From NCBI GenBank assembly GCA_036396535.1, contig DASWKR010000047.1, positions 1 to 64,000 on the forward strand: 64,000 bases of DNA. Direction: 5' to 3'. The notes beneath the pieces are model-generated. The model saw only the letters and a list, made by a program, of their open reading frames with translations. It was not told the origin of the DNA and ran no database searches. Position numbers and translations under genes: made by a program. Below, one piece after another: positions 1-53,280 of the stretch. Numbering within the stretch: position 1 is the first letter of the stretch; each line of letters opens with the position of its first letter. This DNA comes from Acidimicrobiia bacterium (lineage in GTDB: Bacteria; Actinomycetota; Acidimicrobiia; Spongiisociales; UBA5794).

Positions 1-737
1 ACCCAGGCGTCGTACGTCTCCCGCGCCGTCGCCGCGTTGGCCTTCGGGTGGTACGGAGTCTCGCCGGCGAAGGGCGTCTCTGCGCTTCGCTTCTCCCACG
101 TCGATGGGAGGAACTGAAACAAGCCTGCGGCCCCCGAGTTCGGGTTGAGGGCGAACGGGTCGCCGTTCGACTCGCAGTCGATGATGATCAGGGCGTTGTC
201 GGTCTGACCGATGTCGCCGAAGTTGCGGTCGACGAGGTTGCGCCATGCCTCCTCGTCGCGAGGACCCCGGTAGTTCAACTCGCAGTTGTGCTCCCGCTCG
301 GCCTTGCAGACGTCGCTGTAGAAGCCGCCGAAGGCCTTGTCGCGGCCTGCCTTGCCGAAGAGTCGGTCGTTGCCGTTGCCGCCGCGCAGCACGTCGTCCC
401 CTCTGCCGCCCCGGATCGTGTCGCCACCCTTCTCACCAAAGATGACGTCGTTGCCTGCATTTCCGAAGATCACGTCCTTGCCGGCCCCGCCGCAGATGAC
501 GTCGTTCCCGCCGCGCCCGCGGATGCGGTCGTCGCCTGCTCCCCCATCGATGACGTCGCGCCCCGAGGTGCCATCGATCTCATCGGGACCGGCGGTTCCT
601 CTGATCGTGACGGGGTGGCCGCCGCAGGTCGCCGACGCCGCACCGGCGCCGGCGGGCGTCGCGACGATGAGACCTGTGAGGAGGACGAGAACAGCCACGA
701 GACCTACGCCCCGCGAGCGGCTTTCAGTTGGCGCCAT
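1..737 (-). CDS. Secreted RTX-repeat protein with C-terminal lysozyme/transglycosylase-like domain (partial, 3' end outside window)
   Basis: The reading frame is open from ATG at 737 to the window edge, about 245 codons. Residues 1-35 form a Sec signal peptide (Arg-containing n-region, Val/Leu-rich core, AGA-type cleavage site). Residues about 38-140 are glycine/aspartate nonapeptide repeats of the GGxGxDxIxG type, which in the RTX family bind calcium as a parallel beta-roll. The rest resembles SLT/Rpf-type muramidase domains: IDCESNGDPFALNPNSGAAG, then GLFQFLPSTW, with the Glu of CESNGDP as the likely catalytic acid. It is a tandem paralogue of the next gene. A GATACT box ends 8 nt before the ATG and no Shine-Dalgarno is visible. 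It probably acts on cell-wall peptidoglycan outside the cell. The enzymatic class is inferred from motifs only. Confidence 0.8.
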   Translation of the reverse strand, partial: MAPTESRSRGVGLVAVLVLLTGLIVATPAGAGAASATCGGHPVTIRGTAGPDEIDGTSGRDVIDGGAGDDRIRGRGGNDVICGGAGKDVIFGNAGNDVIFGEKGGDTIRGGRGDDVLRGGNGNDRLFGKAGRDKAFGGFYSDVCKAEREHNCELNYRGPRDEEAWRNLVDRNFGDIGQTDNALIIIDCESNGDPFALNPNSGAAGLFQFLPSTWEKRSAETPFAGETPYHPKANAATARETYDAW

Positions 738-1713: not shown

Positions 1714-2841
1714 TCAGGCGGCGGTCCGTTCCGCCTGTTCGAGGACCCGGAGCACGTTGTCACCCAGGGTCATCCGGATCTCCTGCTCGGGCCATCCCCG
1801 GCGCAGCAGCTCCTCGGTGACGGCTGGGAAGCACGAGACGTCCTCGAGGCCGGTCGGCGTCGTTTCGATCCCGTCGAAGTCGCTACCGATCCCGACCGAG
1901 GCGACCCCTGCGACCTCGGCGATGTGCTCCAGGTGGTCGACGACGTGGCCGACCGTTCCCGGGTCGAGTTGCATCGCCGTCGCCCGTGCCGCGCTCGCAG
2001 CGGCAAAGCCGGCCTCGTCCTGCGGGTCGAACTCGGCGCGCAGCGCCCGCTCCGCCTCGAACATGTCGAGGGCGGATCGCGCCGTCGACGCCACGACGAA
2101 TGCCGGGCAGAACACGGCCATCACGACGCCTCCGGTCTCGCCGACTGCACGCAGCACGTCGTCCGGGACGTTGCGAGGGTGGTCCGTGACCGCTCGGGCG
2201 CCCGAATGAGAGGCGATCACAGGGACCACGCTGGCGTCGATGGCGTGTCGCATCGTGGCGGCCGACACGTGCGAGATGTCGACGAGCATCCCGAGGCGGT
2301 TCATCTCGCGGACGACCTCCCTGCCGAAGCCGGTCAACCCGCCGTTCGATTCGATGTCGGTTGCCGAGTCGGCCCACTCGATCGTGGAGCCGTGCGTGAG
2401 CGTCATGTAGCGCACCCCCGCTGCGGCGAGTGCTTCGAGCTTGTCGAGGGAGCCTTCTATGGCGTGCCCGCCTTCGGCGCCGATCAGGCTCGCCACCTTG
2501 CGCTCCTCCCGCGCCCTCATGACGTCTGCCGCGGTGGTCGCCGGCGTCAGCCTCCGAGGATCGGCGGCGACCATTGCCTGGACGAGCGAGACCTGCGCCA
2601 TGACCTCATCGAATGGGTCGGGACGCCAGGACGGGACATATACGGACCAGAACTGTCCGCCGACGCCGCCCTCGAGCAACCTGGCGGTGTCCGTGTGGTA
2701 TCCGGCGAGGTGCCGTCGAGGGTCCGCGACGTCGAGACTTCCGCCCGCTCTCACCCGTATCGCCCACGGCAGGTCGTTGTGCCCATCGACGACGGGGAGG
2801 CTGGCGTGGATGTGCTTCGCCTCGGCGGCGAAGTCGGTCAT
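1714..2841 (-). CDS. Membrane dipeptidase (renal-dipeptidase-like, peptidase family M19)
   Basis: This 375-residue protein belongs to the M19 dipeptidase/amidohydrolase superfamily, zinc enzymes that hydrolyse dipeptides (often D-containing) and related amides. Visible motifs are VVDGHNDLPW near the N-terminus (HxD metal ligands), EGGHAIEG (bridging Glu), YMTLTHGSTIEW, VDISHVS and IASHSGARAV (metal His), and IGSDFDGIE near the C-terminus. No signal peptide is seen, so it is probably cytoplasmic. The ATG at 2841 overlaps the stop of the upstream AhpD-like gene (ATGA), so the two are translationally coupled. An in-frame upstream extension exists but is Arg-rich shadow sequence. Why a dipeptidase is coupled to a peroxidase-like protein is not clear from the sequence. 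Confidence 0.9.
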   Translation of the reverse strand: MTDFAAEAKHIHASLPVVDGHNDLPWAIRVRAGGSLDVADPRRHLAGYHTDTARLLEGGVGGQFWSVYVPSWRPDPFDEVMAQVSLVQAMVAADPRRLTPATTAADVMRAREERKVASLIGAEGGHAIEGSLDKLEALAAAGVRYMTLTHGSTIEWADSATDIESNGGLTGFGREVVREMNRLGMLVDISHVSAATMRHAIDASVVPVIASHSGARAVTDHPRNVPDDVLRAVGETGGVVMAVFCPAFVVASTARSALDMFEAERALRAEFDPQDEAGFAAASAARATAMQLDPGTVGHVVDHLEHIAEVAGVASVGIGSDFDGIETTPTGLEDVSCFPAVTEELLRRGWPEQEIRMTLGDNVLRVLEQAERTAA

Positions 2842-3389
2842 CCTCCCGTTCCCCACGTCTCGAGTGTCACGCCGAGCCCGTCCGCCATCCGGTTGACGTA
2901 GGCGTAGTACGAGGTCACCTCGCAGATGTCGAGGATGTCGCGATCCCCGAATCCCTCTCGCCGCAGGTTCCCGATGTCGTCCTCGGTGACGGATGCCGGG
3001 GCGACCGTCAGCTTGACGGCATAGTCGAGCATGGCGCATCTCGCGGCGCTCAAGCCGGCTGTTCGCCAGTCGCTCTCGATGCGTCCGAGCAGGTCGTCGT
3101 CGCGGAGGAGGCGGCGCAGACCGCGCCGGTGATGGACGACTCAGTAGTGACAGTCGTTCACGGAGCTGACGACGAGGGCGATCAGCTCCCTCTCCACCTT
3201 GCGCAGGGTCTTCGTGCCTGCCATCGCCGACCGATAGAGAGCGTCGTGAGCCGCCATGGCTGCCGGGTTCAGGGAGTGGATCTGCATGATGTTATCGACG
3301 CGCCGCGCCTCCGGGTCCTCGACTCGACGGCGCATCTCGGCGAGATCGCCGGACCACTCGTCCTCACGGATCGTCTCGATCCAGGCCAC
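2838..3389 (-). CDS. AhpD-like peroxidase-related protein, predicted selenoprotein (UGA at codon 83 read as Sec)
   Basis: Read straight through the in-frame TGA at 3143-3141, this is one continuous 183-residue protein of the carboxymuconolactone decarboxylase/AhpD superfamily, peroxidase-related branch. The N-terminus AWIETIREDEW and the centre VVSSVNDCHY-U-VVHH match the family pattern NxCxYCxxHH, with Sec83 replacing the second Cys of CxxC and Cys80 kept. The half after the TGA (YAVKLTVAPASVTEDDI, then DILDICEVTSYYAYVNRMAD) is the conserved C-terminal helix region, so both halves are intact. The start is GTG at 3389 with GGAGGT 6 nt upstream. A SECIS-like hairpin follows the UGA. In AhpD the CxxC pair performs thiol-peroxide chemistry, and Sec would raise reactivity. 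The alternative is a simple nonsense pseudogene, which fits the SECIS poorly. selA, selB, selC and selD are not in this window. Confidence 0.86.
3096..3143 (-). promoter_or_regulatory. Bacterial SECIS element after the in-frame UGA
   Basis: Directly after the UGA (3143-3141) comes GTCGTC (3140-3135), which can pair with GACGAC (3101-3096). Inside lies a perfect 6-bp stem CGGCGC (3128-3123)/GCGCCG (3117-3112) closed by the 5-nt loop GGTCT (3122-3118). From memory, the apical GGUCU and its start 18 nt after the UGA match the Escherichia coli fdhF SECIS recognised by SelB. The element lies inside the coding sequence, as in bacteria generally. Confidence 0.82.
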
Positions 3390-3477
3390 GTTGCACCTCC
3401 GCTCCTTGCCGCGGCACGGCCGGACGGTACTGGCCTCGTCCAGGCGGCACCGGTCACCGATGTAGCCTCCCTGCCGA

Positions 3478-6788: not shown

Positions 6789-6797
6789 ATCGAACTT

Positions 6798-6990
6798 CCG
6801 TTCTTGCGTCCCTCCGACGCCTATGTGCGATGTGGGGACGCCGGAACGAGTGACGCCACCCGCCGATCCGTTCTTGCGTCCCTGCGACGCCTATGTGCGA
6901 TGTGGGGACGCCGGAACGGGTGACGCCACCCGCCGATCCGTTCTTGCGTCCCTGCGACGCGTATGTGCGATGTGGGGACGCCGGAACGGG
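6798..6990. repeat. Three tandem copies of a 53-nt imperfect palindrome, period 70 nt
   Basis: Copies occupy 6798-6850, 6868-6920 and 6938-6990, separated by identical 17-nt spacers. Each begins CCGTTCTTGCGTCCC and ends GGGGACGCCGGAACG, arms that are near-complementary, so each can fold into a long hairpin. Copies differ by only one to three bases. A diverged fourth copy lies at 43327-43378. They fill most of the 264-nt gap between mrp and the DUF3107 gene. REP/BIME-like dispersed elements are the closest analogy. Confidence 0.85.
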
Positions 6991-7290: not shown

Positions 7291-8559
7291 CTACTCGCAG
7301 TTCACGACGACCTCGCCGTTGAGGCAGCTGTCGGTGTCTTTGCCGCCGTAGAGGGTGTCCGTGCCCGGTCCCCCGTCGAGGGTGTCGTCGCCCCGGTTCC
7401 CCTTGAGGAGATCGTTCCCGCCGTTGCCCATGATGGTGTCGTCGCCACCCTCACCTCGGAGCACGTCGTTGCCGTCGCTGCCGATCAGGATGTCGCCCGA
7501 GCTCGAGCCGATGAATACCTCGAACCCGCTGAACGTTGCGGTGACATCTCCCGTCACGCTGCCCGCGGCGACGTCGATGGTGGATGCCGCCCGCACGAAG
7601 AGGCGATCCTTGTCGGCACCACCTGCCACGACGTGGCCGTTGCCCTCGATGACGACCTCATCGCGGCCGGGGCCCGCCATGAGCTCGTCGGGCTCGTCCT
7701 GCTGGCAGCAGTTGCTGAGTACGTCCCGGCCGGTTCCCCCATTCAGATGGTCGCTCCCGATTCCGTCGAGGATGGTGTCGGCACCTGGCCCGCCATCGAC
7801 CGTATCGTTGCCCTCCTCGCCCCACATGCGGTCGTGGCCCGAACCACCGAGCATCGTGTCAGCGCCAGTGCCCCCGCGCATGTAGTCGTGCCCGAGCCCA
7901 CCGATGAGCGTGTCCGAGCCCGCCTCGCCTTCGATTCGGTCCCCGGCGCCGCGGCCATCCAGGAAATCGTCGCCGCTCATGCCGACGATGAGGTTCGGCG
8001 CCGCATTCCCGGTGACGTGATCGTCGAATGGCGATCCGTATACGTTTCGTATGGAGTGGATCGTGTCGCTTCCATCACCGGTTGCGGTCCCGGCGGTGAG
8101 ATCGACCACGAGAGGTCCGGCGGCATCCCGGTAGTCGAGGTTGTCGGGCTGGGAGCCCCCGAACAAGTCATCGTTGCCGGGGCCGCCGGTGATCCAATCG
8201 TTGCCCGCTCCGCCGTGGATCTGGTCGGGTCCTGGTCCTCCGTCGAGCTTGTCTCCTCCGCGGTTGCCGAAGATGATGTCGTTTCCGGGCCCGCCGTCGA
8301 TCGTGTCGTTCTGTCCGTTACCGCAGATGAGGTCGTTGCCGCCGAGCCCGCTGATGGTGTCCGGGCCTCCGAGGCCGACGATGACGTCGTCGCCGGGGGT
8401 CCCGTCGAGCATGTCCGGGCCGTCCGTGCCGACGATGGTGGCTTCGAGGCCGCCGCAGGTCGGAAGGGCCTGCGCCACCGCAGGCGAAGCTGCCACGAAG
8501 CCGGCGACCGCGGTGAGGACGAGGAAGAGGACGGATGAGGATCGAGTTCGTGTGAGCAT
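7291..8559 (-). CDS. Secreted RTX (haemolysin-type calcium-binding) repeat protein
   Basis: This 422-residue protein has a Sec signal peptide (about 1-31, ending AVAQA). An entry module opens with Cys (LPTCGGLEATIVGTDGPD) and closes with GLGGNDLICG. Two blocks of RTX nonapeptides follow (about 45-130 and 185-270), separated by the beta-type linker YRDAAGPLVVDLTAGTATG that is usual between RTX blocks. A third block near 355-405 leads to the Cys-containing end DSCLNGEVVVNCE. No catalytic motif is visible. RTX blocks fold on calcium binding outside the cell. No type I secretion gene is nearby and the signal peptide indicates Sec export. It is a close paralogue of the gene at 8828-10042. Function unknown; adhesive or matrix protein is a guess. 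Confidence 0.85.
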   Translation of the reverse strand: MLTRTRSSSVLFLVLTAVAGFVAASPAVAQALPTCGGLEATIVGTDGPDMLDGTPGDDVIVGLGGPDTISGLGGNDLICGNGQNDTIDGGPGNDIIFGNRGGDKLDGGPGPDQIHGGAGNDWITGGPGNDDLFGGSQPDNLDYRDAAGPLVVDLTAGTATGDGSDTIHSIRNVYGSPFDDHVTGNAAPNLIVGMSGDDFLDGRGAGDRIEGEAGSDTLIGGLGHDYMRGGTGADTMLGGSGHDRMWGEEGNDTVDGGPGADTILDGIGSDHLNGGTGRDVLSNCCQQDEPDELMAGPGRDEVVIEGNGHVVAGGADKDRLFVRAASTIDVAAGSVTGDVTATFSGFEVFIGSSSGDILIGSDGNDVLRGEGGDDTIMGNGGNDLLKGNRGDDTLDGGPGTDTLYGGKDTDSCLNGEVVVNCE

Positions 8560-8827: not shown

Positions 8828-10042
8828 CTACTCGCAGTTCACGACGACCTCGCCGTTGACGCAGCTGTCGGAGCCGTCCCCGCCGTCGAGGTCGTCGAAC
8901 CCGGCTCCGCCGTCCAGCGCGTCCATCCCCTCGTCGCCAAGTAGCCGATCGTCGCCGCTCTTGCCGAGGATCACGTCGTTTCCCTTGCCGCCGCGCAGGT
9001 CGTTGTCCTCGCCATCGCCGATGATGGTGTCGTCCTCGCGCGATCCCCTGTAGACCTCGAAACCGGAGAACGTACCAACCGCAGCGTCCCGCGTGACGGT
9101 GCCTGCCGCGACGTCCAGGGTGGCGGCCACCACGAGATGCAAGTGGTCGCGACCGGCACCGCCGACGGCGTCGAGCACACCCTGGACGAACACGCGATCG
9201 GGACCGGGTCCGCCAAAGAGCAAGTCGGAGTCGTCGGCGTCCGTGCAGCCTTCGAGCGGACAGTGGTACAGCCTGTCCCGGCCGAGACCGCCGTGGATCT
9301 GATCGCTCCCTTGCTCGGCGTAGATGTGGTCGGGGGCCTTCTCGCCGTAGAGCACGTCATCGCCCTCGCCGCCGAAGATGACATCGCGACCATCCCCGCC
9401 GTGGATCACGTCGGCCCCGTCGCCACCGCCGAGGAGATCACGGCCACCACCACCGTGGATCTCGTCGTCACCTCCGTTGCCGAGAAGAGAGTTCGCGACT
9501 TCGTTGCCGACCATCAAGTCATTGAACGTCGATCCATTGATGACGCGGATCGAGGTGAGTTGATCGACGCCTTCCCCGGTCACGACGCCGATCGTCATAT
9601 CGACTGAGATCGGCCCCGCCGCCTCGCTGTATAGGGCGAAGTCGTAGCCGGTTCCGCCTTTGATGTCGTCGTTGCCGGGTCCTCCCCTGAACTTATCGGA
9701 GTCCCCGCCGCCGTGGAGGTCGTCGTTGCCGGCGTCACCGGAAAGGGTGTCGCCGCCGCGCCCACCGTAGATCGCATCGTTCCCGCCGCCGCCGCTGATG
9801 GTGTCGTACCCGGCGCCTCCACAGATGACGTCGTCACCGCCAAGCCCGCTGATGGTGTCCCACCCACCGAGCCCGACGATCACGTCGCCTCCGGACGTCC
9901 CAACGATGACGTCGCCTCCGGGGGTACCGACGATCGTTGCCTCGACGCCCTTGCACGTCTCGACCTGCGGGAGCGCGACTCCGGCCATGGTCGAGGAGAA
10001 GAGAAGGGCGGCGATCCCGATCAAGATCCAGCGCCTCGACAT
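8828..10042 (-). CDS. Secreted RTX (haemolysin-type calcium-binding) repeat protein, paralogue of the gene at 7291-8559
   Basis: This 404-residue protein begins MSRRWILIGIAALLFSSTMA, a clear signal peptide. It then has the same Cys-bracketed module as its paralogue (ETCKGVEATIVGTPGG to GLGGDDVICGG), RTX nonapeptides, the linker YSEAAGPISVDMTIG, a second RTX block, and the terminal DSCVNGEVVVNCE. A central insert has two Cys (HCPLEGCTDADDSD). The start at 10042 has AGAGGTGA just upstream; an in-frame start 19 codons earlier gives an Arg-rich tail and is rejected. No enzymatic domain is seen. Probably a calcium-folded exported or surface protein of unknown role. Confidence 0.85.
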   Translation of the reverse strand: MSRRWILIGIAALLFSSTMAGVALPQVETCKGVEATIVGTPGGDVIVGTSGGDVIVGLGGWDTISGLGGDDVICGGAGYDTISGGGGNDAIYGGRGGDTLSGDAGNDDLHGGGDSDKFRGGPGNDDIKGGTGYDFALYSEAAGPISVDMTIGVVTGEGVDQLTSIRVINGSTFNDLMVGNEVANSLLGNGGDDEIHGGGGRDLLGGGDGADVIHGGDGRDVIFGGEGDDVLYGEKAPDHIYAEQGSDQIHGGLGRDRLYHCPLEGCTDADDSDLLFGGPGPDRVFVQGVLDAVGGAGRDHLHLVVAATLDVAAGTVTRDAAVGTFSGFEVYRGSREDDTIIGDGEDNDLRGGKGNDVILGKSGDDRLLGDEGMDALDGGAGFDDLDGGDGSDSCVNGEVVVNCE

Positions 10043-10151
10043 ACCGTCACCTCTCTTCGAGATTCTCATCCCATGTCTGCGGCTCGTCACCCGCGCCAAC
10101 GCCGGCTGGCTCGTCGCGGGGTCACCGACAAGCGTACGCCTTCGAGAAGAA

Positions 10152-51849: not shown

Positions 51850-51887
51850 CTGTCGCGTTGCCTCCGTTGTCGCCCGGCACGATACGA

Positions 51888-51917
51888 GAGGGGGCCGGGC
51901 ATCCACCCGGCCCCCTC
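51888..51917 (-). terminator. Strong hairpin between livJ and livG (terminator/attenuator)
   Basis: A perfect 12-bp stem GAGGGGGCCGGG/CCCGGCCCCCTC with a 6-nt loop lies 8 nt past the livJ stop. No U-run follows on the minus strand, so it may act as partial terminator or mRNA-stabilising end that raises the binding protein over the membrane components. Confidence 0.6.
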
Positions 51918-51924
51918 GATCGGC

Positions 51925-53280
51925 TCAGAACTCAGGCTTGGGATAGATCATGTCCACGGAGCCTTCGATGGCCGGGAACACGGTCTTCAGCTCTCCGTCC
52001 TGCCACTGGGTGAGGACGTGTGCCCGATCGATCGGCAGCCCCTTCTCGTCCCAGTTGAACTCGCCGAGCACCGTCTTGACGGGATCGTCTGCAGTGCGGG
52101 TCTGGAAGAACTCACGAAGCGCGTCCTGATCCGTCCCTCCCGTTGCGATGATGGCCTGCTCCATGCCTTGGCACACCGCGAACGGGATCGCCTCGTCCTC
52201 GTCCGGGGCCCGGCCGTGCACCGCCGTGAAGTCGGCGATGAAGTCGGCGTTGCCGTATGGCTCGCCTGCGAGCAGGCTGTCGAAGTTCACGTCCGTCGTC
52301 CACGAGGTGTGGATGATGATGCCGTTGGCGGAATCGCCGACGGTGTCGCGGAACTCGGATTGTGCGCCCTGCGACATGTAGAGCAGCTTCGGCTGGTAGC
52401 CGATCGTATTGAAGGCGTCGACCACCGAGACGGCTTCCTCGACCGAGGCGGTCCCGACGAAGACGATGTCGGCGTCGGCCGCCTGGATCGTGTTCGCCAG
52501 GTTGATCCAGTCGTTGAACTCGCCAACCGGCCATGCCTGCTCGACGACGGCTTCGATGCCGGCCTCGGCCAACCACCCGGGGGAGAGGTCGAGCACGACG
52601 TCCGTGTCCGGGATCGGGACCAGGTCGCCGACCAGCCCTGCCGAGATGGCGATGGCGAAGAAGTCGTCCGCATTGATGACGGCGGCAGTTGTCGGGAACT
52701 CGTCCTCAGGGATCAGCCCCTGGTCCCGGTAGTACTCGAGAGCACGGATCGGGGTTGCTCCGATGATCTCCGCAGTTCCCTGCTGGAAATAGAAGAGGTT
52801 CTCGAAGCCGCGCTCCCATATGCGACCGGCACCGCCTGAGGGCACCGGATAGACCCATCCGTTCTGCTCCGCCACGGTCGATGTCGGGAAAGTGAGCGCG
52901 CTCGAGAACGTGCCGAAGAGGACGTCGACGTTGCCCGTGCTGATGAAGCGCTCGTACTGCGTGACCGCAGTCTGCGTGTCCGACCTGCTGTCCTCGACGA
53001 GGAGCTCGACCGGTCGGCCGAGAAGGCCGCCGCGCTCGTTGATCAGATCGACGCACAGTTGGAATCCGTCGCGGTGCTTGATGGCTGGGACGGAGAACTC
53101 ACCAGTCAACGGCAATGACGTGCCGATGACGAGGGGGTCGCCGCTCGGCTCACCACCCGCATCGGCGGTCGTGCTCGGCGCTTCCGTTCCACCGGCAGTC
53201 GTCGTGGTGTCGCCATCGCCTCCCCCGCACGCGGCAACGATCATGGTGAACGCTGCGAGCCAGATGATCGCTCTTCTCAT
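51925..53280 (-). CDS. livJ: ABC transporter substrate-binding lipoprotein (LivJ/LivK type)
   Basis: A 451-residue type I periplasmic-binding-fold protein. The lipobox is in IIWLAAFTMIVAACGGG, followed by a Thr-rich linker. The binding domain starts LVIGTSLPLTGEFSVPAIKH, with LINERGGLLGRPVELLVEDS, VDVLFGTFSSALTFPTSTVA, ALEYYRDQGLIPED, and DIVFVGTASVEEAVSVVDAF. This family carries leucine/isoleucine/valine but also amides, urea or aromatic compounds; the ligand cannot be read. AAGGAG lies 7 nt before the ATG at 53280. It is the first gene of the liv operon. Confidence 0.92.
   Translation of the reverse strand: MRRAIIWLAAFTMIVAACGGGDGDTTTTAGGTEAPSTTADAGGEPSGDPLVIGTSLPLTGEFSVPAIKHRDGFQLCVDLINERGGLLGRPVELLVEDSRSDTQTAVTQYERFISTGNVDVLFGTFSSALTFPTSTVAEQNGWVYPVPSGGAGRIWERGFENLFYFQQGTAEIIGATPIRALEYYRDQGLIPEDEFPTTAAVINADDFFAIAISAGLVGDLVPIPDTDVVLDLSPGWLAEAGIEAVVEQAWPVGEFNDWINLANTIQAADADIVFVGTASVEEAVSVVDAFNTIGYQPKLLYMSQGAQSEFRDTVGDSANGIIIHTSWTTDVNFDSLLAGEPYGNADFIADFTAVHGRAPDEDEAIPFAVCQGMEQAIIATGGTDQDALREFFQTRTADDPVKTVLGEFNWDEKGLPIDRAHVLTQWQDGELKTVFPAIEGSVDMIYPKPEF

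What the first reader, a model, noticed from the sequence alone, without database searches (positions are those of the whole stretch)
3096..3143. SECIS hairpin with the fdhF-type GGUCU apical loop at the fdhF distance
Seen: after the UGA, stem CGGCGC/GCGCCG with loop GGTCT starting exactly 18 nt downstream, and a lower stem GTCGTC/GACGAC that begins right after the UGA. Known: the E. coli fdhF SECIS has a GGUCU-containing apical loop at the same distance, which SelB binds. This coincidence of loop sequence, spacing and position beside a Cys-equivalent UGA is hard to explain by chance.
Basis: partly seen in the sequence, partly recalled or inferred. Interest (0 to 1): 0.85.

Follow-up and report, generated by a model that had tools for sequence, protein, structure and literature searches.

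The report
Selenocysteine insertion hairpin in AhpD-like gene
The hairpin just after an in-frame UGA is a genuine signal that makes this bacterium insert the rare amino acid selenocysteine into an AhpD-like antioxidant protein; it is well conserved but belongs to a kind already known.

Summary
On the minus strand, UGA (3143..3141) is codon 83 of a 183-aa AhpD-like protein (CxxU motif, TIGR01926). After 18 nt comes CGGCGC-GGTCT-GCGCCG. E. coli fdhF has GGTCT at the same 18-nt spacing, checked on an E. coli genome. The hairpin is not chance or codon constraint. Of 82 orthologue sequences, 81 have UGA. All 82 keep a hairpin of at least 5 bp with a GGKCT loop (80 GGTCT, 2 GGGCT). The synonymous pair +15/+27 changes at least 15 times on a tree (GC, CG, GT, AT, TA) without ever breaking. 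Synonymous constraint in codons -20..+24 peaks exactly at the loop. Distant Cys homologues lack the hairpin at that place. The genome has selA, selB, selC and selD. Its other selenoproteins found here (FdhA, SelD, a second AhpD-like protein) carry (G/A)GU(C/U) loops at spacings 18, 32 and 24-25 nt. The lower stem is present in this sequence but not conserved, and the E. coli bulged U is absent. It is a textbook bacterial SECIS in a known selenoprotein family: a new, very well supported member of a known kind.

The parts
2838..3389 (-). AhpD-like selenoprotein CDS: GTG start 3389..3387, 183 aa plus stop, Sec at codon 83 (NDCHYU, CxxU)
   Evidence: translation with TGA=U; TIGR01926 135.9 bits over cut-off 81.8 and TIGR00778; Pfam CMD PF02627
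3141..3143 (-). Sec codon UGA
   Evidence: TGA in 81 of 82 distinct orthologue sequences
3123..3128 (-). SECIS apical stem 5' arm CGGCGC (+13..+18)
   Evidence: pairs kept with synonymous covariation
3118..3122 (-). SECIS apical loop GGTCT (+19..+23), presumed SelB contact
   Evidence: GGTCT in 80 of 82 orthologues, GGGCT in 2; same loop and spacing in FdhA of the genome and E. coli fdhF
3112..3117 (-). SECIS apical stem 3' arm GCGCCG (+24..+29)
3135..3140 (-). putative lower stem, 5' side GTCGTC (+1..+6); not conserved
3096..3101 (-). putative lower stem, 3' side GACGAC (+40..+45); not conserved
3394..3400 (-). likely Shine-Dalgarno GGAGGTG before the GTG start
   Evidence: sequence
1714..2841 (-). 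downstream M19 dipeptidase; its ATG overlaps the selenoprotein's stop (ATGA); a recurrent but not universal neighbour
   Evidence: PF01244; next to the AhpD-like gene in several orthologous loci

Best explanation
The hairpin is a functional bacterial SECIS element. When the ribosome reaches UGA codon 83, the 17-nt apical stem-loop, with its GGUCU loop 18 nt downstream, is bound by the C-terminal winged helices of SelB carrying GTP and Sec-tRNA(Sec). Selenocysteine is inserted instead of terminating, giving an AhpD-like CxxU redox enzyme, probably a peroxidase. Shown here: conserved UGA; conserved and covarying hairpin; synonymous constraint at the loop; complete Sec machinery; a SelB whose C-terminus aligns with E. 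coli SelB; and related loops in the other selenoprotein genes found. Inferred: SelB binding, actual Sec insertion, and enzymatic function.
For: UGA in 81 of 82 orthologue sequences. The loop codon is GGT in 80/82 and GGG in 2, although GGC is the commonest Gly codon of these genes; synonymous-constraint G statistics of 131, 197 and 153 at codons +6..+8 are the highest of codons -20..+24. Pair +15/+27 (both third codon positions) is GC 57, CG 12, GT 7, AT 4, TA 2 with no mismatch, and needs at least 15 changes on the tree, while the loop T (+21) needs 2 and most other third positions tested need 12-29. All 82 have at least 5 bp around the loop at offset 17-19; median pair probability is 0.98-1.00. 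The genome has SelB and SelA, tRNA-Sec and SelD. FdhA, SelD and the second AhpD-like gene have in-frame UGA with (G/A)GU(C/U) loops, and relatives agree. SelB aligns with ribosome-bound E. coli SelB over residues 3-597 (5lzb). It meets all four criteria of the published bSECIS model (PMC13188914).
Against: No readthrough, protein or selenium data. Folding of 60 nt or more favours another structure in this one gene. The lower stem is not conserved. The stem lacks the E. coli bulged U. One orthologue (L055) has TTA instead of TGA with the hairpin intact, probably a sequence error or recent mutation, since that genome has tRNA-Sec. By independent pairs on well-supported branches the covariation test has too few contrasts for significance.
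Confidence: 0.96

Rival explanations
1. The palindrome is a by-product of coding a conserved RRGLRR peptide with GC-rich Arg codons and has no RNA function.
For: RRGLRR is nearly invariant among orthologues and CGN codons readily form palindromes in GC-rich DNA.
Against: Third positions are not free: GGT 80/82, CTG 80/82, CGC 75/82 at the loop and closing pair; +15/+27 covaries. Distant Cys homologues do not have RRGLRR, and a Cys-SelD of the same order (L215) lacks the SelD hairpin that Sec-SelDs carry.
Confidence: 0.02
2. The UGA is a true stop or sequencing error (two separate ORFs or a pseudogene).
For: Single draft assembly; one orthologue has a sense codon there.
Against: UGA at the same codon in 81 of 82 orthologue sequences from many genomes, in the Cys position of the CxxC motif, with an open frame of about 100 codons behind it.
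Confidence: 0.01
3. The hairpin works by another route, e.g. a readthrough or pausing signal that lets a near-cognate tRNA read UGA without selenium.
For: Stem-loops after stop codons can stimulate readthrough in general (background knowledge).
Against: Full Sec machinery in the genome and an fdhF-like loop at the fdhF spacing.
Confidence: 0.01

Closest known systems
E. coli fdhF SECIS
   Same: GGUCU apical loop at exactly 18 nt after UGA, in the coding region (checked)
   Different: Uninterrupted 6-bp upper stem without the bulged U; no conserved lower stem; a different protein family
AhpD-like CxxU selenoproteins (TIGR01926 in PMC13188914; AhpD-like 1 in PMC2398784; also Sargasso Sea set PMC1088965)
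   Same: Same NCBIfam family and same CxxU motif with Sec at the second position
   Different: The class-wide set analysed here, with its loop conservation and covariation, was not found described in the library searched
bSECIS consensus model (as given in PMC13188914)
   Same: Loop 3-9 nt, stem 4-16 bp, G in the first two loop positions, 16-37 nt spacing, MFE at or below -7.5 kcal/mol all met
   Different: Nothing; this lineage uses a narrower version, mostly GGU(C/U)

Membership tests
bacterial SECIS (bSECIS model, PMC13188914) | 3-9 nt apical loop on a 4-16 bp upper stem | tested here: met
   5-nt loop, 6 bp
bacterial SECIS (bSECIS model, PMC13188914) | G in one of the first two loop positions | tested here: met
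   GGTCT; both G invariant in the aligned orthologues
bacterial SECIS (bSECIS model, PMC13188914) | 16-37 nt between UGA and loop | tested here: met
   18 nt
bacterial SECIS (bSECIS model, PMC13188914) | MFE at or below -7.5 kcal/mol | tested here: met
   -10.7 kcal/mol for the 17-nt hairpin
bacterial SECIS (bSECIS model, PMC13188914) | Sec-decoding genome (selA, selB, selC, selD) | tested here: met
bacterial SECIS (bSECIS model, PMC13188914) | SelB binding and Sec insertion in vivo | not testable with these tools
   needs experiment
E. coli fdhF-type SECIS | GGUCU loop at 18 nt | tested here: met
   compared with an E. coli fdhF
E. coli fdhF-type SECIS | bulged U in the upper stem (background knowledge) | tested here: not met
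   stem paired without a bulge in the window and in the orthologues
E. coli fdhF-type SECIS | lower stem next to the UGA | tested here: not met
   can pair in the window, but mostly mismatched in orthologues
AhpD-like CxxU selenoprotein (TIGR01926) | profile match over the cut-off and CxxU motif | tested here: met
   135.9 bits against 81.8; NDCHYU
AhpD-like CxxU selenoprotein (TIGR01926) | peroxidase or other redox activity | not testable with these tools
   needs assay

The most novel reading that the evidence does not exclude
In this bacterial class SelB reads a near-fixed (G/A)GU(C/U) loop without the bulged U, while the spacing from UGA varies from 18 to about 33 nt between selenoprotein genes of one genome. 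The four genes would be a natural test of which SECIS feature SelB actually needs.
Probability: 0.45. Interest if true: 0.4.

Novelty: new member of a known kind. Interest (0 to 1): 0.3.

Why it matters
It adds a well-supported selenoprotein that standard gene callers truncate at UGA, in a class (apparently Acidimicrobiia, by the titles of related records) where the library searched held no selenoprotein study. It also gives a large natural alignment (82 sequences) showing which SECIS positions are constrained: the loop and six pairs, not the lower stem.

Tried and rejected
Folding of the 63 nt after the UGA gave a different MFE structure and z = +0.49; this reflects length and GC content, and shorter stretches and orthologues give the hairpin. 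Rfam gathering search gave nothing at the locus. Another UGA plus a strong 12-bp hairpin in the window (51927, minus strand) was rejected as a SECIS: it follows the normal end of an ABC substrate-binding protein gene and lies in the gap before the ATPase gene. The SelB search at E <= 1e-40 also rings for EF-Tu, so presence of SelB in every relative was not claimed.

Full report
What is there. The minus-strand frame from GTG 3389 to the stop at 2838 reads as a 183-aa protein if UGA 3143..3141 is sense. It is an AhpD-like protein (TIGR01926, 135.9 bits over a cut-off of 81.8; AhpD core TIGR00778; Pfam CMD), and the UGA is the second position of the CxxC-type motif (NDCHYU). Its closest solved relatives are AhpD-type peroxidase-related proteins, e.g. 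2pfx and 3c1l. The stop overlaps the start of an M19 dipeptidase (ATGA), which also lies next to the gene in several orthologous loci.

The hairpin. After the UGA come 12 nt, then CGGCGC-GGTCT-GCGCCG (17 nt). GGTCT begins after 18 nt, as in E. coli fdhF, read from an E. coli genome: TGA CACGGCCCATCGGTTGCA GGTCT GCACC. Chance is excluded: about 0.001 such structures were expected in the window. A pattern scan of the genome found nine places with UGA-N15-SSS-GGTCT-SSS; one is this gene and another is FdhA.

Conservation. Searches of named genomes and of 395 genomes of the class gave 82 distinct orthologue sequences. 81 have UGA; one (L055) has TTA but keeps the hairpin, and its genome has tRNA-Sec. 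The loop is GGTCT in 80 and GGGCT in 2. Codons +6, +7 and +8 are CGC 75/82, GGT 80/82 and CTG 80/82, and carry the strongest synonymous constraint of codons -20..+24. Pair +15/+27, both third positions of Arg codons in most sequences, is GC, CG, GT, AT or TA with no mismatch. On a tree built without the SECIS codons it changes at least 15 times; the loop T (+21) changes twice, most other third positions tested 12-29 times. A stricter independent-pairs count has too few supported contrasts to be significant by itself. The claimed lower stem is not kept, in line with the statement that the minimal SECIS is a 17-nt upper stem-loop (PMC11431864).

Not codon constraint. Distant Cys homologues code AHGAILR-like residues and have no G-loop hairpin at +19. 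In SelD, nearly all relatives with UGA have the hairpin around the loop at +33..+37, while the Cys-SelD L215 lacks it.

The genome decodes Sec. SelB and SelA are adjacent (C22), tRNA-Sec is on C35 (72.7 bits), SelD on C35. SelB aligns with ribosome-bound E. coli SelB (5lzb) over residues 3-597, including the C-terminal winged helix. Further selenoprotein genes found: FdhA (GGTCT, 18 nt), SelD (AGTCT, 32 nt; relatives mostly GGTCC/GGTTC) and a second AhpD-like protein (AGGTTG, 24 nt; relatives often CGGTCG). So this genome does not use a clearly different SECIS elsewhere; it uses the same kind of loop at different spacings.

Known or new. The bSECIS model criteria (PMC13188914) are all met, and the AhpD-like CxxU selenoprotein of TIGR01926 is in the same review's table and in earlier marine surveys. 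It is therefore a new, unusually well-documented member of a known kind. Differences from E. coli fdhF are the missing bulged U and missing conserved lower stem.

What is inferred. SelB binding, Sec insertion and peroxidase function rest on family knowledge and conservation; nothing here measures them.

Noticed in passing
L070, second AhpD-like gene of the genome (contig C72): A second AhpD-like CxxU selenoprotein with a different SECIS spacing: GACCTC-AGGTTG-GAGGTC, 24 nt after UGA.
   Followed up: partly
L078, L079, L080 (about 1-Mb genomes of the same class, family code f12): Small genomes keep tRNA-Sec and an AhpD-like UGA gene whose CTCCGGTCGGAG hairpin stays GC-rich in AT-rich surroundings; the library held no paper with both Actinomarina and selenocysteine (the identity of f12 is my guess).
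   Followed up: partly
L055: Orthologue with TTA (Leu) in place of UGA but an intact SECIS hairpin (CGT-CGC-GGTCTG-CGA); sequence error or very recent loss of Sec.
   Followed up: partly
window 3-737, 810-1670, 7291-8559, 8828-10099 (minus strand): Four ORFs with calcium-binding RTX-like GGxGxD repeats; the first two end in a lysozyme/transglycosylase-like ESNGDPFA...GLFQF stretch (by eye).
   Followed up: no
window 6797-6990: Intergenic tandem array, 70-bp unit, 2.8 copies, 97% identical, just after an Mrp-like ATPase gene.
   Followed up: no
window 51882-51927 (minus strand): Strong 12-bp GC-rich hairpin right after the stop of an ABC substrate-binding protein gene and before its ATPase gene; looks like an attenuator or terminator without a T-run.
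   Followed up: partly
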